Assembly (NCBI RefSeq): GCF_008729015.1
Contig: NZ_RKSM01000001.1
Coordinates: forward strand, 1,922,001-1,986,000
Reading direction: 5' to 3'
Source: Haloarcula sp. CBA1129
Lineage (GTDB): Archaea > Halobacteriota > Halobacteria > Halobacteriales > Haloarculaceae
DNA: 64,000 nucleotides
Under the pieces are notes generated by a model, which saw only the letters and a program-made list of their open reading frames with translations, searched no databases and was not told where the DNA came from. This document shows positions 14,289-46,898 of this stretch, piece after piece. The stretch's first letter is position 1. Every line of letters begins with the position of its first letter. Made by a program: the position numbers and the translations under genes.

Positions 14289-15833
14289 TCAGTCGTCAGC
14301 GACGAGCGGGTCCTCGTCGTCGGCGACGAGGCGGTCCATCGCGTCGACCATCGCACGCACGGACGCCCGAGTGATATCGGAGTCACTGGCGGAGACGACG
14401 ACGTGGTCGTCGCCGCGTGACATCTCGATTTCGACCGTGACGAGCGCATCGGTCCCGCCCGTGATGGCGTCGACGTGGTAGTCTTCGAGCGTCGCGTCGG
14501 CGGTGTGAGACAGCGCTACCTCGGCAGCATTCATCGCGGCGTCGACCGGCCCGGAGCCGACCGCTGCCTCCTTGCGCTCCTCGCCGTCGACCGCGAGCCG
14601 GACGCTCGCTGTCGGCGTATCGGAGCCGGAAACGGCGGTCAGGCCGAGCAGTTCGACCCGGCGGTCGCGTGCGTCACCAGTCACCTCGTCGGCGATGGTC
14701 AGCAGGTCGGCGTCGGTGACGCGCTTGCCGCGGTCGCCGATCTCCTTGACGCGGTTGACGATCTCCGAGAGCTGGTCATCGGTGACCTCGACGTCGTGTT
14801 CGTCGAGGGCGGCCTCGACACCGGCCCGGCCCGCGTGCTTGCCGAGTGCGAGACGGCGTTCGCGGCCCACCTTCTCCGGCGGATACGGCTCGTACATCGA
14901 GTCGTCCTTGAGCGTGCCGTCGGTGTGGATGCCGGACTCGTGGGTGAAGGCGTTCTCCCCGACAACCGCCTTGTTGGGGGCCAGTGGGATGCCGGTTCGG
15001 TTGGCGATGAGCTGGGCGAGGTCGTACACCTCGGTGAGATCCATTGACTCGACGCCGTAGCCGTGGTCGAGCGCGATGGCTATCTCTTCGAGGGCGACGT
15101 TGCCGGCGCGCTCACCAATACCGTTTATCGTCCCGTGGACGAGGTCGGCCCCGGCACCGAGCGAGACGAGGGCGTTCGTCACCGCGAGCCCTAAGTCGTC
15201 GTGGGTGTGGGTGCTGACCGGTCCTAGATCCGAGAGCCGGGACACGCATTCGAGCGCGCGGTCCGGCGTCGCGTGGCCGACAGTGTCGGCCCAGCAGATG
15301 CGGTCCGCGCCGGCCTCGATAGCGGCCCCGAGCAGTTCTTCGAGGTAGTCCAGATCGGCACGCGAGCCGTCCTCGCCGATGACCTCGACCCAGAGCCCGT
15401 GATCGGCGGCGTACTCCACCAGTTCGACAGTGTTGTCGACGTTCTCGGACTTGGAGGTGCCGACCTTCTGCTCTACGTGCTTATCACTGGCCGGGACAAC
15501 GAGATTGATACCGTCGACACCACAGTCGAGCGCGAGGTCGATATCGTTCTGGATACCGCGACAGAAGCTGGTGACGGTACTGTCGAGGTCAAGCCCTGCG
15601 ACGCGAGAAATCGTTTCGCGCTCGCCGGGGCCGGTACAGGCGCTCCCGGCCTCGATGACGTCGATACGCGCCGCGTCAAGCGAGCGGGCGATGTCGGCCT
15701 TGTCGTCCGGCGTCAGTGAGACGCCGGGGGCCTGCTCACCGTCGCGCAGTGTCGTGTCGAGAAACTGTACCTCACCGACATCTGAGAGCGCACGCATCGC
15801 TGGGTGCCCCTCGAACAATGTGTTCTGACTCAC
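14289..15833 (-). CDS. (R)-citramalate synthase or 2-isopropylmalate synthase
   Basis: A 514-residue LeuA/CimA-type enzyme. The catalytic domain begins VQFLDTTLRDGEQAPGVSLT (signature at about residues 27-45), followed by the metal-binding THTHDDLGLAVTNAL and GTINGIGERAGNVALEE. A central helical region (GKHAGRAG) and a C-terminal LeuA allosteric regulatory domain are present. The haloarchaeal type with this N-terminus is often assigned to citramalate synthesis (isoleucine); sequence alone does not separate it from leucine synthesis. I chose the GTG at 15833, which keeps NTLFEGHP; the ATG at 15797 is the alternative. Short leader ORFs lie directly upstream. Confidence 0.82.
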   Translation of the reverse strand: MSQNTLFEGHPAMRALSDVGEVQFLDTTLRDGEQAPGVSLTPDDKADIARSLDAARIDVIEAGSACTGPGERETISRVAGLDLDSTVTSFCRGIQNDIDLALDCGVDGINLVVPASDKHVEQKVGTSKSENVDNTVELVEYAADHGLWVEVIGEDGSRADLDYLEELLGAAIEAGADRICWADTVGHATPDRALECVSRLSDLGPVSTHTHDDLGLAVTNALVSLGAGADLVHGTINGIGERAGNVALEEIAIALDHGYGVESMDLTEVYDLAQLIANRTGIPLAPNKAVVGENAFTHESGIHTDGTLKDDSMYEPYPPEKVGRERRLALGKHAGRAGVEAALDEHDVEVTDDQLSEIVNRVKEIGDRGKRVTDADLLTIADEVTGDARDRRVELLGLTAVSGSDTPTASVRLAVDGEERKEAAVGSGPVDAAMNAAEVALSHTADATLEDYHVDAITGGTDALVTVEIEMSRGDDHVVVSASDSDITRASVRAMVDAMDRLVADDEDPLVADD

Positions 15834-15847: not shown

Positions 15848-15918
15848 CACGCGCCACGAATTTCGCGGCCAGCCGCCTCGCGGCGACTTCCTCTATCCTC
15901 CGTCGGGTGTTCCGACAT
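15847..15918 (-). CDS. 23-residue leader ORF upstream of the citramalate/isopropylmalate synthase
   Basis: Reads MSEHPTEDRGSRREAAGREI then RGA and TGA. A TATA-like TTTTAG lies at 15946-15951 on the minus strand, about 30 nt before this ATG, so a leaderless transcript would begin here. The coding sequence also forms a GCCGC/GCGGC-type hairpin (around 15871-15885). An in-frame ATG at 15942 is too close to the TATA element to be used. A role as a translated attenuator is inference. Confidence 0.45.
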   Translation of the reverse strand: MSEHPTEDRGSRREAAGREIRGA

Positions 15919-43016: not shown

Positions 43017-43934
43017 ATGCAGACCCACATCGTCCCGGTCGGGTTCGACTACGACCGGCTCATCGCGCCGCTCGTGCGCGAGCAACTCGACGTTGACCGC
43101 GTCATCCTGCTCGAAGGGGCGGTCGGCAGCGAGGCCAACGTCGAGTACTCGCGCAACCTCGCCGAGAAGCTCGAGAAGGACTACCAGAACCTGCTCGGAG
43201 CGGAAACCGAGCGATTCGTCGTCGCCGACGTGTACGACTACGACGAGGCCTTCGAGCAGGCCTTCGAACTCATCAACGCCGAACTCGATGCGGGCAGCGA
43301 GGTGTGGGTCAACGTCTCCGCGATGCCCCGAACCGTCTCGTTTGCCTTCGCGACTGCGGCCCACTCGATCATGGTCGAGCGCGAGGGCGACCGGGACCGA
43401 ATCCACACCTACTACACGGTCCCCGAGAAGTATCTGGAGACTGAGCTCGCGGAGGAACTGCGCAAGCAAATCGACATGCTAGAGGACATGCGCACGGGCG
43501 AAGAAGTCGACGAGCGGGTCGACGAGCGACTCGAAACCGCACGGGACCTGCTGTCGGAGTTCGACGAGCGCGGGACGACCATCGGCGCGAAGGAGATCGA
43601 CGGCTCCCACATCGTCGAACTCCCGGTCGCCTCCTTCTCGAACGTCAAGCCCTTCGAGGAGGTCATCCTCTTTACGCTCGGCGAACACGGCGAGTTCGAG
43701 TCCGTCTCCGAACTGGCCCAGCAACTGGCCCGGGACATGGGCGAGGAGTACACAGACTCATTCCGCTCGAAGGTCATCTACAACGTCGACCGGCTCGGCC
43801 CCGGCGGGAAGGGGTACATCGAGCAGGAGGATCACGGGAAATCCTACCGGACGACACTCTCGCGCATCGGGCAACTGTGGGTCCGCGCCCACTCTGCCGA
43901 GGACCGCGATCACCGCGAGCCTGACCTGCCGTAG
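43017..43934 (+). CDS. HFX_2341-type regulator: CARF-like N-terminal domain with C-terminal winged helix
   Basis: A 305-residue soluble protein. The N-terminal half (MQTHIVPVGFDYDRLIAPLV, VILLEGAVGSEANVEYSRNL, EVWVNVSAMPRTVSFAFATA) has the Rossmann-like pattern of CARF domains. A helical linker rich in Glu/Arg and a winged-helix part (EEVILFTLGEHGEFESVSEL, IYNVDRLGPGGKGYIEQED) follow. By analogy with CARF regulators it may sense a nucleotide ligand and bind DNA. No CRISPR genes are nearby. TTTATA at about 42988-42993 supports a leaderless start. Located just upstream of the valS leader. Confidence 0.78.
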   Translation: MQTHIVPVGFDYDRLIAPLVREQLDVDRVILLEGAVGSEANVEYSRNLAEKLEKDYQNLLGAETERFVVADVYDYDEAFEQAFELINAELDAGSEVWVNVSAMPRTVSFAFATAAHSIMVEREGDRDRIHTYYTVPEKYLETELAEELRKQIDMLEDMRTGEEVDERVDERLETARDLLSEFDERGTTIGAKEIDGSHIVELPVASFSNVKPFEEVILFTLGEHGEFESVSELAQQLARDMGEEYTDSFRSKVIYNVDRLGPGGKGYIEQEDHGKSYRTTLSRIGQLWVRAHSAEDRDHREPDLP

Positions 43935-43978
43935 TCAGCGCTGTGAATCTGCTGGAACGCCAGCGAAAACCGAAGTCA

Positions 43979-43983
43979 TTAAT
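43979..43983 (+). promoter_or_regulatory. valS: TATA-like element for the valS leader transcript
   Basis: TTAAT within CATTAATCC, centred 29 nt before the ATG at 44010. No comparable AT-rich element lies 26-30 nt before the valS ATG at 44172, so this is the best promoter candidate for valS and implies a leader of about 160 nt. Confidence 0.5.
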
Positions 43984-44009
43984 CCTGCCGTTGGTGGAAT
44001 ACTACATAC

Positions 44010-44111
44010 ATGGTGCGTCGACTCGCTTCCGATCTGGTTCTCGCGCCCGTCGGTGTAGGGGCCTCCACGCCCCACACCACCTCCCCAAATCGACGCACGC
44101 ACCGCCGATAA
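44010..44111 (+). CDS. 33-residue leader ORF upstream of valS, Val/Leu-rich
   Basis: Reads MVRRLASDLVLAPVGVGAST, then PHTTSPNRRTHRR and TAA. Four Val and three Leu fall in the first 16 residues. The ATG coincides with the predicted transcription start, so it would be translated from a leaderless end. The coding sequence folds on itself: GTGCGTCGA (44013-44021) is complementary to TCGACGCAC (44090-44098), enclosing a 10-bp inner stem (44052-44062 with 44069-44078, one bulged A, 6-nt loop). This is the classical layout of a translated attenuator; function is inferred. Confidence 0.45.
   Translation: MVRRLASDLVLAPVGVGASTPHTTSPNRRTHRR
44013..44098 (+). promoter_or_regulatory. Strong stem-loop structure in the valS leader
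   Basis: Outer 9-bp perfect pairing 44013-44021/44090-44098 and inner 10-bp GC-rich hairpin 44052-44062/44069-44078. Downstream, between the leader ORF stop and valS, a 12-nt unit CGATAACCGCGC is directly repeated (44106-44117 and 44118-44129), the first copy containing the leader ORF stop codon. Whether the fold is a regulatory element or a separate small RNA cannot be told. Confidence 0.5.
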
Positions 44112-44171
44112 CCGCGCCGATAACCGCGCCGCAGTCCGATGCGACTCGGGTGTTACACCCACAGTTAGAAT

Positions 44172-46898
44172 ATGAGTGACACACAGGACTCACCGCAGGA
44201 CGAATCGACTACAGACAACTCAGAAGACGCCCTCGACGGGGAGTACGACCCTCGCGAGGTAGAGCCGGAATGGCAGGACCAGTGGGTCGCGGACAAGACC
44301 TACGCCTACGACGAGGACGCTGACACCCGCTTCACTATCGACACGCCGCCGCCGACAGTGTCCGGGAACCTCCACATGGGCCACCTCTATCAGTTCACGC
44401 TGCAGGACTTCGTCGCCCGCTACCACCGGATGGCCGACGACACCGTCTACTTCCCCTTCGGATACGACGACAACGGCATCGCCTCGGAACGCCTCACCGA
44501 GCGTGAACTCGATATTCGACATCAGGATTACCCGCGGCGGGAGTTTCAGGAGAAGTGCCGAACGGTGTGTACCGGGTTCGAGGACGAGTTCACCGAGGAC
44601 GTCCAGTCGCTAGCGATTTCCATCGACTGGGACAACACCTACAAGACCATCGCGCCGGACGTCCAGCGGGTCTCCCAACTGTCCTTCCTCGACCTCTACG
44701 AGCAGGGTCGGGAGTACCGTCAGCGCGCGCCGACTATCTGGTGTCCGGACTGTGAGACGGCCATCTCACAGGTCGAACAGGAAGACAAGGACAAGCACAC
44801 GAAGTTCAACGACATCGCCTTTGATCTGGTCGAGACCGGCGAGGGGCCAGCCGACGAAGATGCTACCTTCACCATCTCGACGACACGACCGGAACTCCTG
44901 CCGGCGTGTGTCGCCGTCTTCGTCCATCCCGACGACGACGAGAATCAGCACCTCGTCGGCGGTTCCGCACGGGTGCCTATCTTCGAGCAGGAGGTCCCCG
45001 TCATCGCCGACGAGCGCGTCGACATGGAGACCGGCAGCGGTATCGTGATGTGCTGTACCTTCGGCGACCAGAACGACATCGAGTGGTATCAGGCGCATGA
45101 CCTACCGCTGCGACTGGCCATCGACGAGTCCGCGACAATGACCGATGTGGCCGGCGAGTACGAGGGGATGCACACCACCGAGGCCCGCGAGGCCATCATC
45201 GAGGACCTCGACGAAGAGGGGGCGCTGCTTGAGAGCCGCGACCACGACCACACCGTGCAGGTCCACGAGCGCTGCGAGGAAGAGGTCGAGTACCTCGTCA
45301 CCGAGCAGTGGTACATCGAACTGCTCGACAAGAAGGAGGAGTACATCGAGGCGGGCCGCCAGATGGAGTGGTTCCCCGAGAAGATGGCGACCCGCTACGA
45401 GCACTGGATCGAAGGGCTCGAATGGGACTGGTGTATCTCCCGCCAGCGCGACTCCGGTATCCCGATTCCGGTGTGGTACTGCGACGACTGCGGCGAACCC
45501 GTGATGGCCGAGCGCGAGCAGTTGCCGGTCGATCCGCTGTCGGACGACCCGCCGGCTGAGAGCTGTCCGCACTGTGGCCACGACTCGCTGACGCCCGAGG
45601 AGGACGTGTTCGACACGTGGGCGACATCGTCACTAACGCCGCTCGTGAATGCCGGGTGGGACTGGGACAGCGACGCCGGAGAGTTCACCTGGGACAACCC
45701 CGAGCTGTACCCGTTCGACCTTCGCCCGCAGGGTCACGACATCATCTCCTTCTGGCTGTTCCACACCGTCGTCAAGTGCTACGAGCACACCGGCGAGGTG
45801 CCCTTCGAGAACGTGATGATAAACGGGATGGTGCTGGACGAGAACCGCGAGGCGATGTCCAAATCGAAGGGCAACGTCATCCCGCCCAGCGAGGTCCTGG
45901 CGGAGTTCCCGGTCGACGCCACGCGCTACTGGGCCGCCGGTACTTCCATCGGCGACGACTTCCCGTACAAGGAGGGCGATCTGGAGGCCGGCGAACGGCT
46001 CCTCCAGAAGCTCTGGAACGCCTCCCGGCTGGTCGACCAGCTCACGCCGGCGAGCAAGCCCGACGAACCTGAAGACCTTGCGGCGGTCGACGAGTGGCTG
46101 CTGGCCGAACTGGACGCGACCGTGGAATCGGTCACGACGAAGTTCGAGGAGTACGAGTTCTCGAAGGCCCGGAACGAGCTCCGGTCCTTTTTCTGGAACA
46201 CGTTCTGTGACGACTACCTCGAAATCGCCAAGCAACGACTCAGCGACGGCGGCGACGTCTCGACGGAGTTCACGCTTCTGGAGGCCCACCGGACCTTCCT
46301 CCAGCTGTTCGCGCCGTTCCTGCCCCACATCACGGAGGAGCTGTGGGAGCGGTGCTATAGCGAGAGCGAGGCGCAACGCGCCTCGGAACAATCGAGCGGA
46401 CAGGGTCCGCGAGACGAGGATCGCTCCATCCACACGACGGACTGGCCGACGGCGGGCGGCTACGACGCAGACCTCGAAGCGGGCGAGACGGCCATGGAGG
46501 TCGTCTCCGCGCTCCGGCGCTACAAGACCGAGAACGGCCTGCCGCTGAACGCCGACCTCGACCACGTCGAGGTGTTCGGCCACATCGCCGGCTTCGAGGA
46601 CGCCGTCGCCGAGGCGATGCACGTCGCCCAGCTGGACACCTACGACGAGGCCCCGGACATCACGACCGAGGTCAGCGGCATCGACCTCGACTACTCCATC
46701 GTCGGTCCCGAGTTCGGCAGTGAAGTCGGCGCTATCGACGCCGCTATCGAGGACGGCGACTACGAGGTCGACGGCGACACGCTGCAGGTCGCCGGCGTCG
46801 AACTCGACGACGAGATGTTCACCGTCGAGGAGTCCCGGACCTACTCCGGCGAGGGCGAGATGACCGAAACCGAAAGCGCCGTCGTCGTCGTTCGGTAA
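44172..46898 (+). CDS. valS: Valyl-tRNA synthetase
   Basis: A 908-residue class I synthetase with an acidic N-terminal extension. HIGH is present as VSGNLHMGHLYQF (68-71 HMGH), the CP1 editing domain follows (TISTTRPELLPACVAVFVHP), DWCISRQRDSGIPIPVWYCD and zinc-binding CDDCGE/CPHCGH lie in the middle, and the KMSKS loop is REAMSKSKGNVIPP near residue 560. C-terminal anticodon-binding helices include RFEEYEFSKAR-like segments. It charges tRNA-Val. No Shine-Dalgarno sequence and no leaderless-type promoter directly precede the ATG. Confidence 0.94.
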   Translation: MSDTQDSPQDESTTDNSEDALDGEYDPREVEPEWQDQWVADKTYAYDEDADTRFTIDTPPPTVSGNLHMGHLYQFTLQDFVARYHRMADDTVYFPFGYDDNGIASERLTERELDIRHQDYPRREFQEKCRTVCTGFEDEFTEDVQSLAISIDWDNTYKTIAPDVQRVSQLSFLDLYEQGREYRQRAPTIWCPDCETAISQVEQEDKDKHTKFNDIAFDLVETGEGPADEDATFTISTTRPELLPACVAVFVHPDDDENQHLVGGSARVPIFEQEVPVIADERVDMETGSGIVMCCTFGDQNDIEWYQAHDLPLRLAIDESATMTDVAGEYEGMHTTEAREAIIEDLDEEGALLESRDHDHTVQVHERCEEEVEYLVTEQWYIELLDKKEEYIEAGRQMEWFPEKMATRYEHWIEGLEWDWCISRQRDSGIPIPVWYCDDCGEPVMAEREQLPVDPLSDDPPAESCPHCGHDSLTPEEDVFDTWATSSLTPLVNAGWDWDSDAGEFTWDNPELYPFDLRPQGHDIISFWLFHTVVKCYEHTGEVPFENVMINGMVLDENREAMSKSKGNVIPPSEVLAEFPVDATRYWAAGTSIGDDFPYKEGDLEAGERLLQKLWNASRLVDQLTPASKPDEPEDLAAVDEWLLAELDATVESVTTKFEEYEFSKARNELRSFFWNTFCDDYLEIAKQRLSDGGDVSTEFTLLEAHRTFLQLFAPFLPHITEELWERCYSESEAQRASEQSSGQGPRDEDRSIHTTDWPTAGGYDADLEAGETAMEVVSALRRYKTENGLPLNADLDHVEVFGHIAGFEDAVAEAMHVAQLDTYDEAPDITTEVSGIDLDYSIVGPEFGSEVGAIDAAIEDGDYEVDGDTLQVAGVELDDEMFTVEESRTYSGEGEMTETESAVVVVR

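What the first reader, a model, noticed from the sequence alone, without database searches (positions are those of the whole stretch)
44010..44171. Possible translated attenuator in front of valS
The predicted transcript starts at a 33-codon ORF whose first 16 residues hold four Val and three Leu, and which folds into an outer 9-bp and an inner 10-bp stem. valS itself has neither a Shine-Dalgarno site nor a leaderless-type promoter at its own start, so it must depend on this leader. Bacterial ilv leader peptides have the same amino-acid bias. A 12-nt direct repeat lies between the leader ORF and valS.
Basis: partly seen in the sequence, partly recalled or inferred. Interest (0 to 1): 0.6.

Follow-up and report, generated by a model that had tools for sequence, protein, structure and literature searches.

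The report
Archaeal valine-sensing leader before valS
A tiny valine-rich reading frame in front of the valyl-tRNA synthetase gene, with sister versions rich in the matching amino acid in front of other haloarchaeal genes, looks like the ribosome-read amino-acid sensor known from bacteria, which I found no report of in archaea.

Summary
The leader ORF (44010-44111), the inner hairpin (44052-44078) and the outer stem are real, and all are conserved. 93 distinct valS leaders from Haloarculaceae, Natrialbaceae and others keep an in-frame ORF ending in Val codons (GTA fixed) flush against a GGGGC/GCCCC hairpin, although its length takes 17 values. The same module precedes ilvB in nearly every haloarchaeal family sampled, including this genome, but with Ile-Val (and Leu) codons: the codon before GTA is Ile in 48/48 ilvB and 0/93 valS leaders. 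pheS has Phe-rich leaders (GFGFFF; this genome too), and a second trpS has Trp-rich ones (WRWW). ileS, leuS and five class II synthetase genes have none. The rest of the peptide is unconstrained. A TATA-like box lies ~28 nt before the leader ATG, so translation is probably leaderless. Published dRNA-seq had mapped uORFs before Haloferax trpS and pheS as small proteins. Best reading: a family of archaeal ribosome-stalling attenuators; a ribosome stalled for lack of charged tRNA keeps the hairpin open and raises expression. Whether the hairpin acts by premature transcription termination or at translation is unresolved. The 12-nt repeat is a strain-specific duplication.

The parts
43970..43985 (+). 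BRE/TATA-like promoter block (CCGAAGTCATTAATCC), ~28 nt before the leader ATG
   Evidence: conserved in Haloarcula-type loci even where the upstream gene differs; AT fraction 0.92-1.0 at -27..-30 in 26 loci; same AT peak in valS and ilvB leaders
44010..44111 (+). leader ORF, 33 codons, probably translated leaderless
   Evidence: ORF; frame-0 ORF covers the hairpin anchor in 88/89 valS and 48/48 ilvB loci versus 6-18 and 7-10 in the other frames, anchor chosen without regard to frame
44037..44057 (+). control-codon zone: Val10 GTT, Val14 GTC, Val16 GTA; GTA abuts the hairpin
   Evidence: GTA is 154/231 Val codons in the last 6 codons of valS leaders versus 1/60 in the window valS gene; 88/93 leaders have a further Val within 3 codons of the GTA, 26.7 expected
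44052..44078 (+). inner (attenuator) hairpin GGUGU-A-GGGGC CUCCAC GCCCC-ACACC
   Evidence: -17.1 kcal/mol; GGG/CCC core present in all collected leaders, extension replaced GGUGU/ACACC -> UAGU/ACUA between clades
44013..44021 (+). 5' arm of outer stem (codons 2-4)
   Evidence: 9/9 complementary to 44090-44098; helix of 8 bp or more in 89% of 35 Haloarculaceae-type leaders versus 6% of shuffles, with CGUCGA/UCGACG <-> CGCCGA/UCGGCG changes
44090..44098 (+). 3' arm of outer stem
44074..44089 (+). G-poor, C-rich tail after the hairpin core
   Evidence: 7-9% G over the first 20 nt across valS leaders, 4-7% in ilvB leaders
44103..44126 (+). 12-nt tandem duplication CGCCGATAACCG x2, strain-specific, probably not functional
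44172..46898 (+). valS, valyl-tRNA synthetase, the controlled gene
   Evidence: ORF; conserved in all 32 genus genomes

Best explanation
It is a ribosome-mediated attenuator. The valS transcript starts at or next to 44010 and the first thing translated, leaderless, is a 33-codon sensor ORF. When charged tRNA-Val is plentiful the ribosome passes the Val codons, finishes and leaves; the GGGGC/GCCCC hairpin (with, in Haloarculaceae, the outer stem) forms and lowers valS expression. When Val-tRNA is short the ribosome stalls on the Val codons that abut the hairpin; its footprint covers the 5' arm, the hairpin cannot form, and valS is expressed. The same design with Ile/Leu/Val codons controls ilvB, and leaders rich in the cognate residue precede pheS and trpS2. 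Shown here: ORF, frame maintenance, gene-matched codons, hairpin next to the codons, covarying outer stem, promoter placement. Inferred: translation of the leader, stalling, the direction of the response. Undecided: whether the hairpin lowers expression by premature transcription termination (my first guess) or by interfering with translation.
For: Codon before GTA is Ile in 48/48 ilvB and 0/93 valS leaders; Ile makes up 28% of the last six codons in ilvB leaders and 0.5% in valS leaders; Val 25% and 41%. Control residues peak within about 6 codons of the hairpin and fall to 4-10% further up. Frame 0 open in 88/89 and 48/48 loci while ORF length takes 17 and 14 values. Rare codons are used: GTA 154/231 versus 1/60, ATT 65/81 versus 2/25. 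No amino-acid constraint upstream of the control codons: differences by codon position 601/558/575 (valS) and 112/116/108 (ilvB), as expected when only decoding matters. Pattern GTAGGGGC-N3-9-GCCCC occurs 3 times in this 4-Mb genome: ilvB leader, valS leader, and once without a short leader ORF in a long open frame; in 59 genomes most matches sit before ilvB or valS, and the 20 others checked were not such leaders. pheS leaders ..GFGFFF.. including this genome's MASESHTGVARQPPDRPGFGFFFAT*; trpS2 leaders with W-x-W inside a covarying stem. Independent: dRNA-seq of Hfx volcanii found uORFs downstream of mapped TSSs before a trpS (23 aa) and pheS (26 aa) (PMC4983044). A hairpin gave 59% termination in an Hfx volcanii reporter (PMC7237163).
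Against: No expression, TSS or ribosome data for these valS/ilvB leaders. No alternative antiterminator helix was found. Terminator-type T-runs after the hairpin are short and irregular (longest 1-5 in 60 nt). Five of 93 valS leaders have no further Val within three codons of the GTA. Halorubrum and other Haloferacaceae valS lack the leader, and ileS, leuS, thrS, serS, proS, hisS, glyS, main trpS and trpC show none. Many loci are closely related, so counts are not independent events.
Confidence: 0.82

Rival explanations
1. An RNA-only element: the stems form a riboswitch or a tRNA-Val mimic bound by ValRS (E. coli thrS-type autoregulation), and the ORF is incidental.
For: The hairpin core GTA-GGG-GC is nearly invariant in nucleotides; the outer stem covaries; the RF03001 leuA-Halobacteria element elsewhere in this window shows that structured leaders exist in these genomes.
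Against: Frame kept across 17 and 14 lengths; the same hairpin serves ilvB, whose product is not a synthetase, with codons swapped to Ile/Leu/Val; Haloarchaeobius and Halorubellus valS keep a Val-rich uORF (VAVV) without the GGGG hairpin; no Rfam match at or above a family's cut-off.
Confidence: 0.08
2. Same sensor, different output: translational rather than transcriptional control. Ribosome position on uORF1 decides whether ribosomes reach the main start, in many loci through a second short ORF whose TGA overlaps the main ATG (ATGA). (This is a sub-variant of the best explanation; its confidence is conditional on the sensor being right.)
For: A second uORF ending in the ATGA overlap occurs in 39/43 ilvB loci (7.7 expected by shuffling; 0 and 5 in the other frames) and in 47/92 valS loci (15 expected); the spacer is G-poor just after the hairpin; no consistent T-tract terminator.
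Against: The second uORF is absent before Haloarcula valS, the case in this window; no conserved pairing between the hairpin and the main start was found.
Confidence: 0.4
3. A functional small protein or arrest peptide encoded upstream of valS.
For: Short leaderless ORF conserved as an ORF; C-terminal VGA/STPH residues recur.
Against: N-terminal part evolves equally at all three codon positions and mostly by amino-acid change; length 11-41 codons before the hairpin in valS leaders; the conserved residues coincide with the RNA hairpin; four different gene types carry different cognate residues.
Confidence: 0.04
4. Chance ORF and chance stems in a GC-rich genome.
For: Single-sequence folding is barely better than shuffles (z -1.7).
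Against: Conservation, covariation and gene-matched codons across several families.
Confidence: 0.01

Closest known systems
Bacterial ribosome-mediated transcription attenuators (ilvGMEDA, ilvB, trp, phe, pheST leader peptides)
   Same: Short leader ORF loaded with codons of the regulated amino acid(s), codons placed so that a stalled ribosome changes a hairpin; ilv leaders mix Ile/Leu/Val; synthetase genes such as pheST can be targets (own knowledge).
   Different: Archaeal host and promoter; sensor ORF probably leaderless; one hairpin directly abutting the control codons and overlapping or near the stop codon, no antiterminator found, no clear U-run terminator; often a second uORF overlapping the main start.
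E. coli pyrBI-type attenuation
   Same: A ribosome sitting next to a hairpin directly prevents it from forming, without an alternative hairpin (own knowledge).
   Different: pyrBI senses UTP through RNA polymerase pausing, not a charged tRNA.
T-box riboswitch (Firmicutes aaRS genes)
   Same: Controls aaRS and amino-acid genes by sensing tRNA charging.
   Different: T-box binds uncharged tRNA directly; no T-box match here and the present element is read as codons.
Rfam RF03001 leuA-Halobacteria RNA
   Same: Conserved leader element before a branched-chain amino-acid gene in the same class; read as an ORF it ends near an Ile codon (ATT).
   Different: Different sequence and structure; it matches at 15855-15907 and not at the valS or ilvB leaders.
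uORFs in long 5'-UTRs of Haloferax volcanii (Babski et al. 2016, PMC4983044)
   Same: uORFs with mapped TSSs before a tryptophan--tRNA ligase gene and pheS, the same gene types as the Trp- and Phe-rich leaders found here.
   Different: Reported as small proteins; in the section read here no cognate-codon bias, hairpin or regulatory role was reported, and valS and ilvB are not in the table.

Membership tests
ribosome-mediated attenuator (bacterial leader-peptide type) | short leader ORF enriched in codons for the cognate amino acid | tested here: met
   Val 41% of the last six codons before valS; Ile+Leu+Val 64% before ilvB; Phe and Trp leaders
ribosome-mediated attenuator (bacterial leader-peptide type) | control codons placed where a stalled ribosome alters an RNA hairpin | tested here: met
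   control residues peak within about 6 codons of the hairpin and GTA abuts it
ribosome-mediated attenuator (bacterial leader-peptide type) | mutually exclusive antiterminator and terminator hairpins | tested here: not met
   consensus folds show the single hairpin (plus an enclosing stem or small helices) and no competing helix
ribosome-mediated attenuator (bacterial leader-peptide type) | intrinsic terminator (U-run) before the structural gene | tested here: inconclusive
   longest T-run in the 60 nt after the hairpin is 1-5; a hairpin motif from a coding region terminated 59% of transcripts in Haloferax (PMC7237163)
ribosome-mediated attenuator (bacterial leader-peptide type) | expression rises when the cognate aminoacyl-tRNA is scarce | not testable with these tools
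   needs starvation reporters or ribosome profiling
T-box riboswitch | specifier loop and T-box bulge, Rfam T-box model match | tested here: not met
   no T-box match at E<=10 in 43900-44300, none in the window at gathering cut-off
leuA-Halobacteria RNA (RF03001) | match to the RF03001 covariance model | tested here: not met
   valS leader and ilvB leader do not match; match only at 15855-15907 minus strand
aaRS autoregulation by tRNA-like leader (E. coli thrS type) | synthetase binds an anticodon-like leader stem-loop | not testable with these tools
   the same hairpin precedes ilvB, not a synthetase gene, which argues against it

The most novel reading that the evidence does not exclude
Halobacteria possess a general, previously unrecognised system of amino-acid-sensing attenuation in which leaderless sensor ORFs with cognate codons (Val for valS; Ile/Leu/Val for ilvB; Phe for pheS; Trp for trpS2) control synthetase and biosynthesis genes: the first ribosome-mediated attenuators in Archaea, and therefore evidence that archaeal ribosome stalling on nascent mRNA is used as a regulatory signal.
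Probability: 0.72. Interest if true: 0.9.

Novelty: new variant of a known kind. Interest (0 to 1): 0.84.

Why it matters
Leader-peptide attenuation is a textbook bacterial mechanism; my searches of the open PMC library found no archaeal case. A conserved set of codon-matched leaders before valS, ilvB, pheS and trpS2 would show that archaea use ribosome stalling on leaderless mRNA to sense charged tRNA, imply usable coupling of translation with transcription (or with downstream initiation), and explain how these genes respond to amino-acid supply. It is directly testable in genetically tractable haloarchaea with small reporter constructs and existing RNA-seq/Ribo-seq data.

Tried and rejected
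Rfam scans of the leaders: no family at or above its cut-off. Single-sequence folding: uninformative. Leaders before ileS and leuS, thrS/serS/proS/hisS/glyS, main trpS and trpC: none found, so the feature is not generic; trpC instead has a palindromic TGTACA-rich promoter. Other genome-wide matches to the hairpin pattern: 20 examined; most lie in long open frames, none has the leader layout, and two sit just upstream of a tRNA gene. Purifying selection on the leader peptide: not found, which argues against a functional small protein. Antiterminator pairing: not found. Functional role for the 12-nt repeat: rejected, single copy in close relatives. An DNA alignment failed on coordinates; the covariation count was done by script instead. 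Literature: ten searches of open PMC papers found no report of archaeal leader-peptide attenuation; most subscription papers and all preprints were not covered. Main-text search of PMC7237163 found no mention of attenuation.

Full report
Observation. The leader ORF at 44010-44111 (33 codons), the 9-bp outer stem (44013-44021/44090-44098), the 10-bp inner stem with a bulged A (44052-44078) and the 12-nt direct repeat (44103-44126) are all in the sequence. By folding energy alone the leader is unremarkable (z -1.7), so comparison had to decide.

Conservation within the genus. valS was found in all 32 genomes of the genus. Upstream of it a TATA-like block (CCGAAGTC[AG]TT[AT]A) lies about 28 nt before a leader ATG, and the ORF and both stems recur. 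Two clades exist: the window type (MVRRL..VLAPVGVG[AV][SP]TPHTT..*) and a shorter type that stops just after the hairpin (MARR..VLVPVVGVSTPH*). The hairpin extension is GGUGU/ACACC in one and UAGU/ACUA in the other, both with the bulged A. In 35 Haloarculaceae-type leaders the longest helix between the codons after the ATG and the region after the hairpin is at least 8 bp in 89% (6% of shuffles), with CGUCGA/UCGACG to CGCCGA/UCGGCG changes and GUG/CAC to GCG/CGC extensions. The 12-nt repeat is single in close relatives.

Conservation in the class. From about 140 valS loci and 51 ilvB loci I obtained 93 distinct valS leaders and 48 distinct ilvB leaders. valS leaders end V-V-G-A, V-F-V-G-A or V-R-V-G-A according to lineage; ilvB leaders end I-I-V-G-A, I-R-I-V-G-A or G-I-V-G-A. 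In the window's own genome ilvB carries MTAAAGRQVRPPASTATAILGVRIVGAL* with hairpin GTAGGGGCACTATAGCCCC. The hairpin pattern occurs three times in that genome: before ilvB, before valS, and once in a long open frame without a leader layout.

Is it read as codons? Five lines say yes. ATG-to-GTA length takes 17 and 14 values. (2) Specificity: the codon before GTA is Ile in 48/48 ilvB and 0/93 valS leaders; Ile is 0.5% of the last six codons before valS and 28% before ilvB. (3) Position: control residues are concentrated within about six codons of the hairpin and drop to 4-10% further upstream; 88/93 valS leaders have a further Val within three codons of the GTA, 26.7 expected. (4) Rare codons: GTA is 154/231 of Val codons there and 1/60 in valS; ATT is 65/81 of Ile codons there and 2/25 in ilvB. 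(5) The rest of the peptide is unconstrained: differences fall equally on the three codon positions and most are non-synonymous. Counts describe related genomes and are not independent events.

Generalisation. pheS loci carry leaders such as MASEPYAGCTSREPAARPGFGFFFDA*, in this genome MASESHTGVARQPPDRPGFGFFFAT* (roughly two thirds of 38 loci). A standalone second trpS carries MQSAPTRWRWRTSGADSLAFAA* and relatives, with the Trp codons enclosed by a stem GTCCGCTCCC/GGGAGCGGAC that covaries (GTCCGCTCTC/GAGAGCGGAC) (11 of 12 loci). ileS, leuS, thrS, serS, proS, hisS, glyS, the main trpS and trpC have none. Published dRNA-seq of Hfx volcanii lists uORFs in long 5'-UTRs before a tryptophan--tRNA ligase (23 aa) and pheS (26 aa), noted there as small proteins (PMC4983044).

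Architecture downstream. After the hairpin comes about 20 nt with only 4-9% G. Before ilvB (39 of 43) and in about half of the valS loci, nearly all Natrialbaceae, a second short ORF ends with its TGA inside the main ATG (ATGA), far above shuffles (7.7 and 15 expected) and above the other frames. Haloarcula valS lacks it.

Mechanism. The placement of the control codons directly against the hairpin means that a ribosome waiting for Val-tRNA (or Ile/Leu/Val-tRNA) would cover its 5' arm; a ribosome that has finished would let it form. The simplest reading is that the hairpin is the off state. How it lowers expression is open. Hairpins can terminate transcription in Haloferax (59% for one tested, PMC7237163), but T-runs here are weak; the ATGA-coupled second uORF hints at translational coupling. 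No competing antiterminator was found. Leader translation, stalling and the sign of the response are inferred, not shown.

Comparison and novelty. It works like a bacterial leader-peptide attenuator but fails one classical feature (alternative hairpins) and differs in being leaderless and archaeal. It is not a T-box and not RF03001, which lies elsewhere in the window. Ten searches of the open literature found no archaeal precedent; preprints and most subscription journals were not covered, so priority is not certain. A related hint is the published remark that the leuA gene HVO_1510 may need ribosomal slippage and be translated only when leucine is unavailable (PMC8305020).

Noticed in passing
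window 15855-15907 (-), upstream of the leuA/cimA-type gene at 14694-15770 (-): Match to Rfam RF03001 leuA-Halobacteria (72.8 bits). Read as an ORF it is MSEHPTEDRGSRREAAGREIRGA*, with an Ile codon ATT near its end; in other families a different short ORF with ATTCGGGG..CCCGAAT (MTRDRFIRG..*) precedes this gene, so it may be an Ile-reading leader too.
   Followed up: partly
L272-L281 (leuA directly upstream of ilvB; G000:C1 about 313340-314495): No ATG/GTG/TTG near the expected LeuA N-terminus in frame in most of 10 genomes; the promoter-proximal ATG opens an overlapping ORF shifted by one base, with conserved CGA GTT CTT CCA, suggesting a +1 frameshift at Val-Leu codons. The start-codon problem and possible slippage were already noted for HVO_1510 (PMC8305020).
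   Followed up: partly
L063 and L066 (Haloterrigena sp. H1, Natrinema hispanicum), valS leader: An insert of roughly 80 nt with inverted ends TCAGGGCGGACGTAA..TTACGTCCGCCCTGA splits the leader exactly between GTA and GGGG; L064 (another N. hispanicum strain) is intact. A natural disruption of the attenuator.
   Followed up: no
L088 and L113 (Haloarchaeobius, Halorubellus) upstream of valS: Very short Val-rich uORFs MEHASVAVVRT* and MESFAVAVVRPVA* without the GGGG hairpin.
   Followed up: no
L350-L378 upstream of trpC: Conserved inverted TGTACA-rich promoter block (e.g. TTATGTACA..GTACATTAGTGTACA), an operator-like site instead of a leader ORF.
   Followed up: no
L252 and L255: GTAGGGGC..GCCCC element conserved upstream of a tRNA gene, with a TTTAAGTA box, unrelated to the valS leader.
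   Followed up: partly
Natrialbaceae valS leaders, e.g. L061, L082, between hairpin and valS: Highly conserved block CCGTTTCGACGGATGTATTGTCGNCGACCAGC and a GCCCG..CGGGC hairpin just before GGTGAGAGCATG; function unknown.
   Followed up: partly
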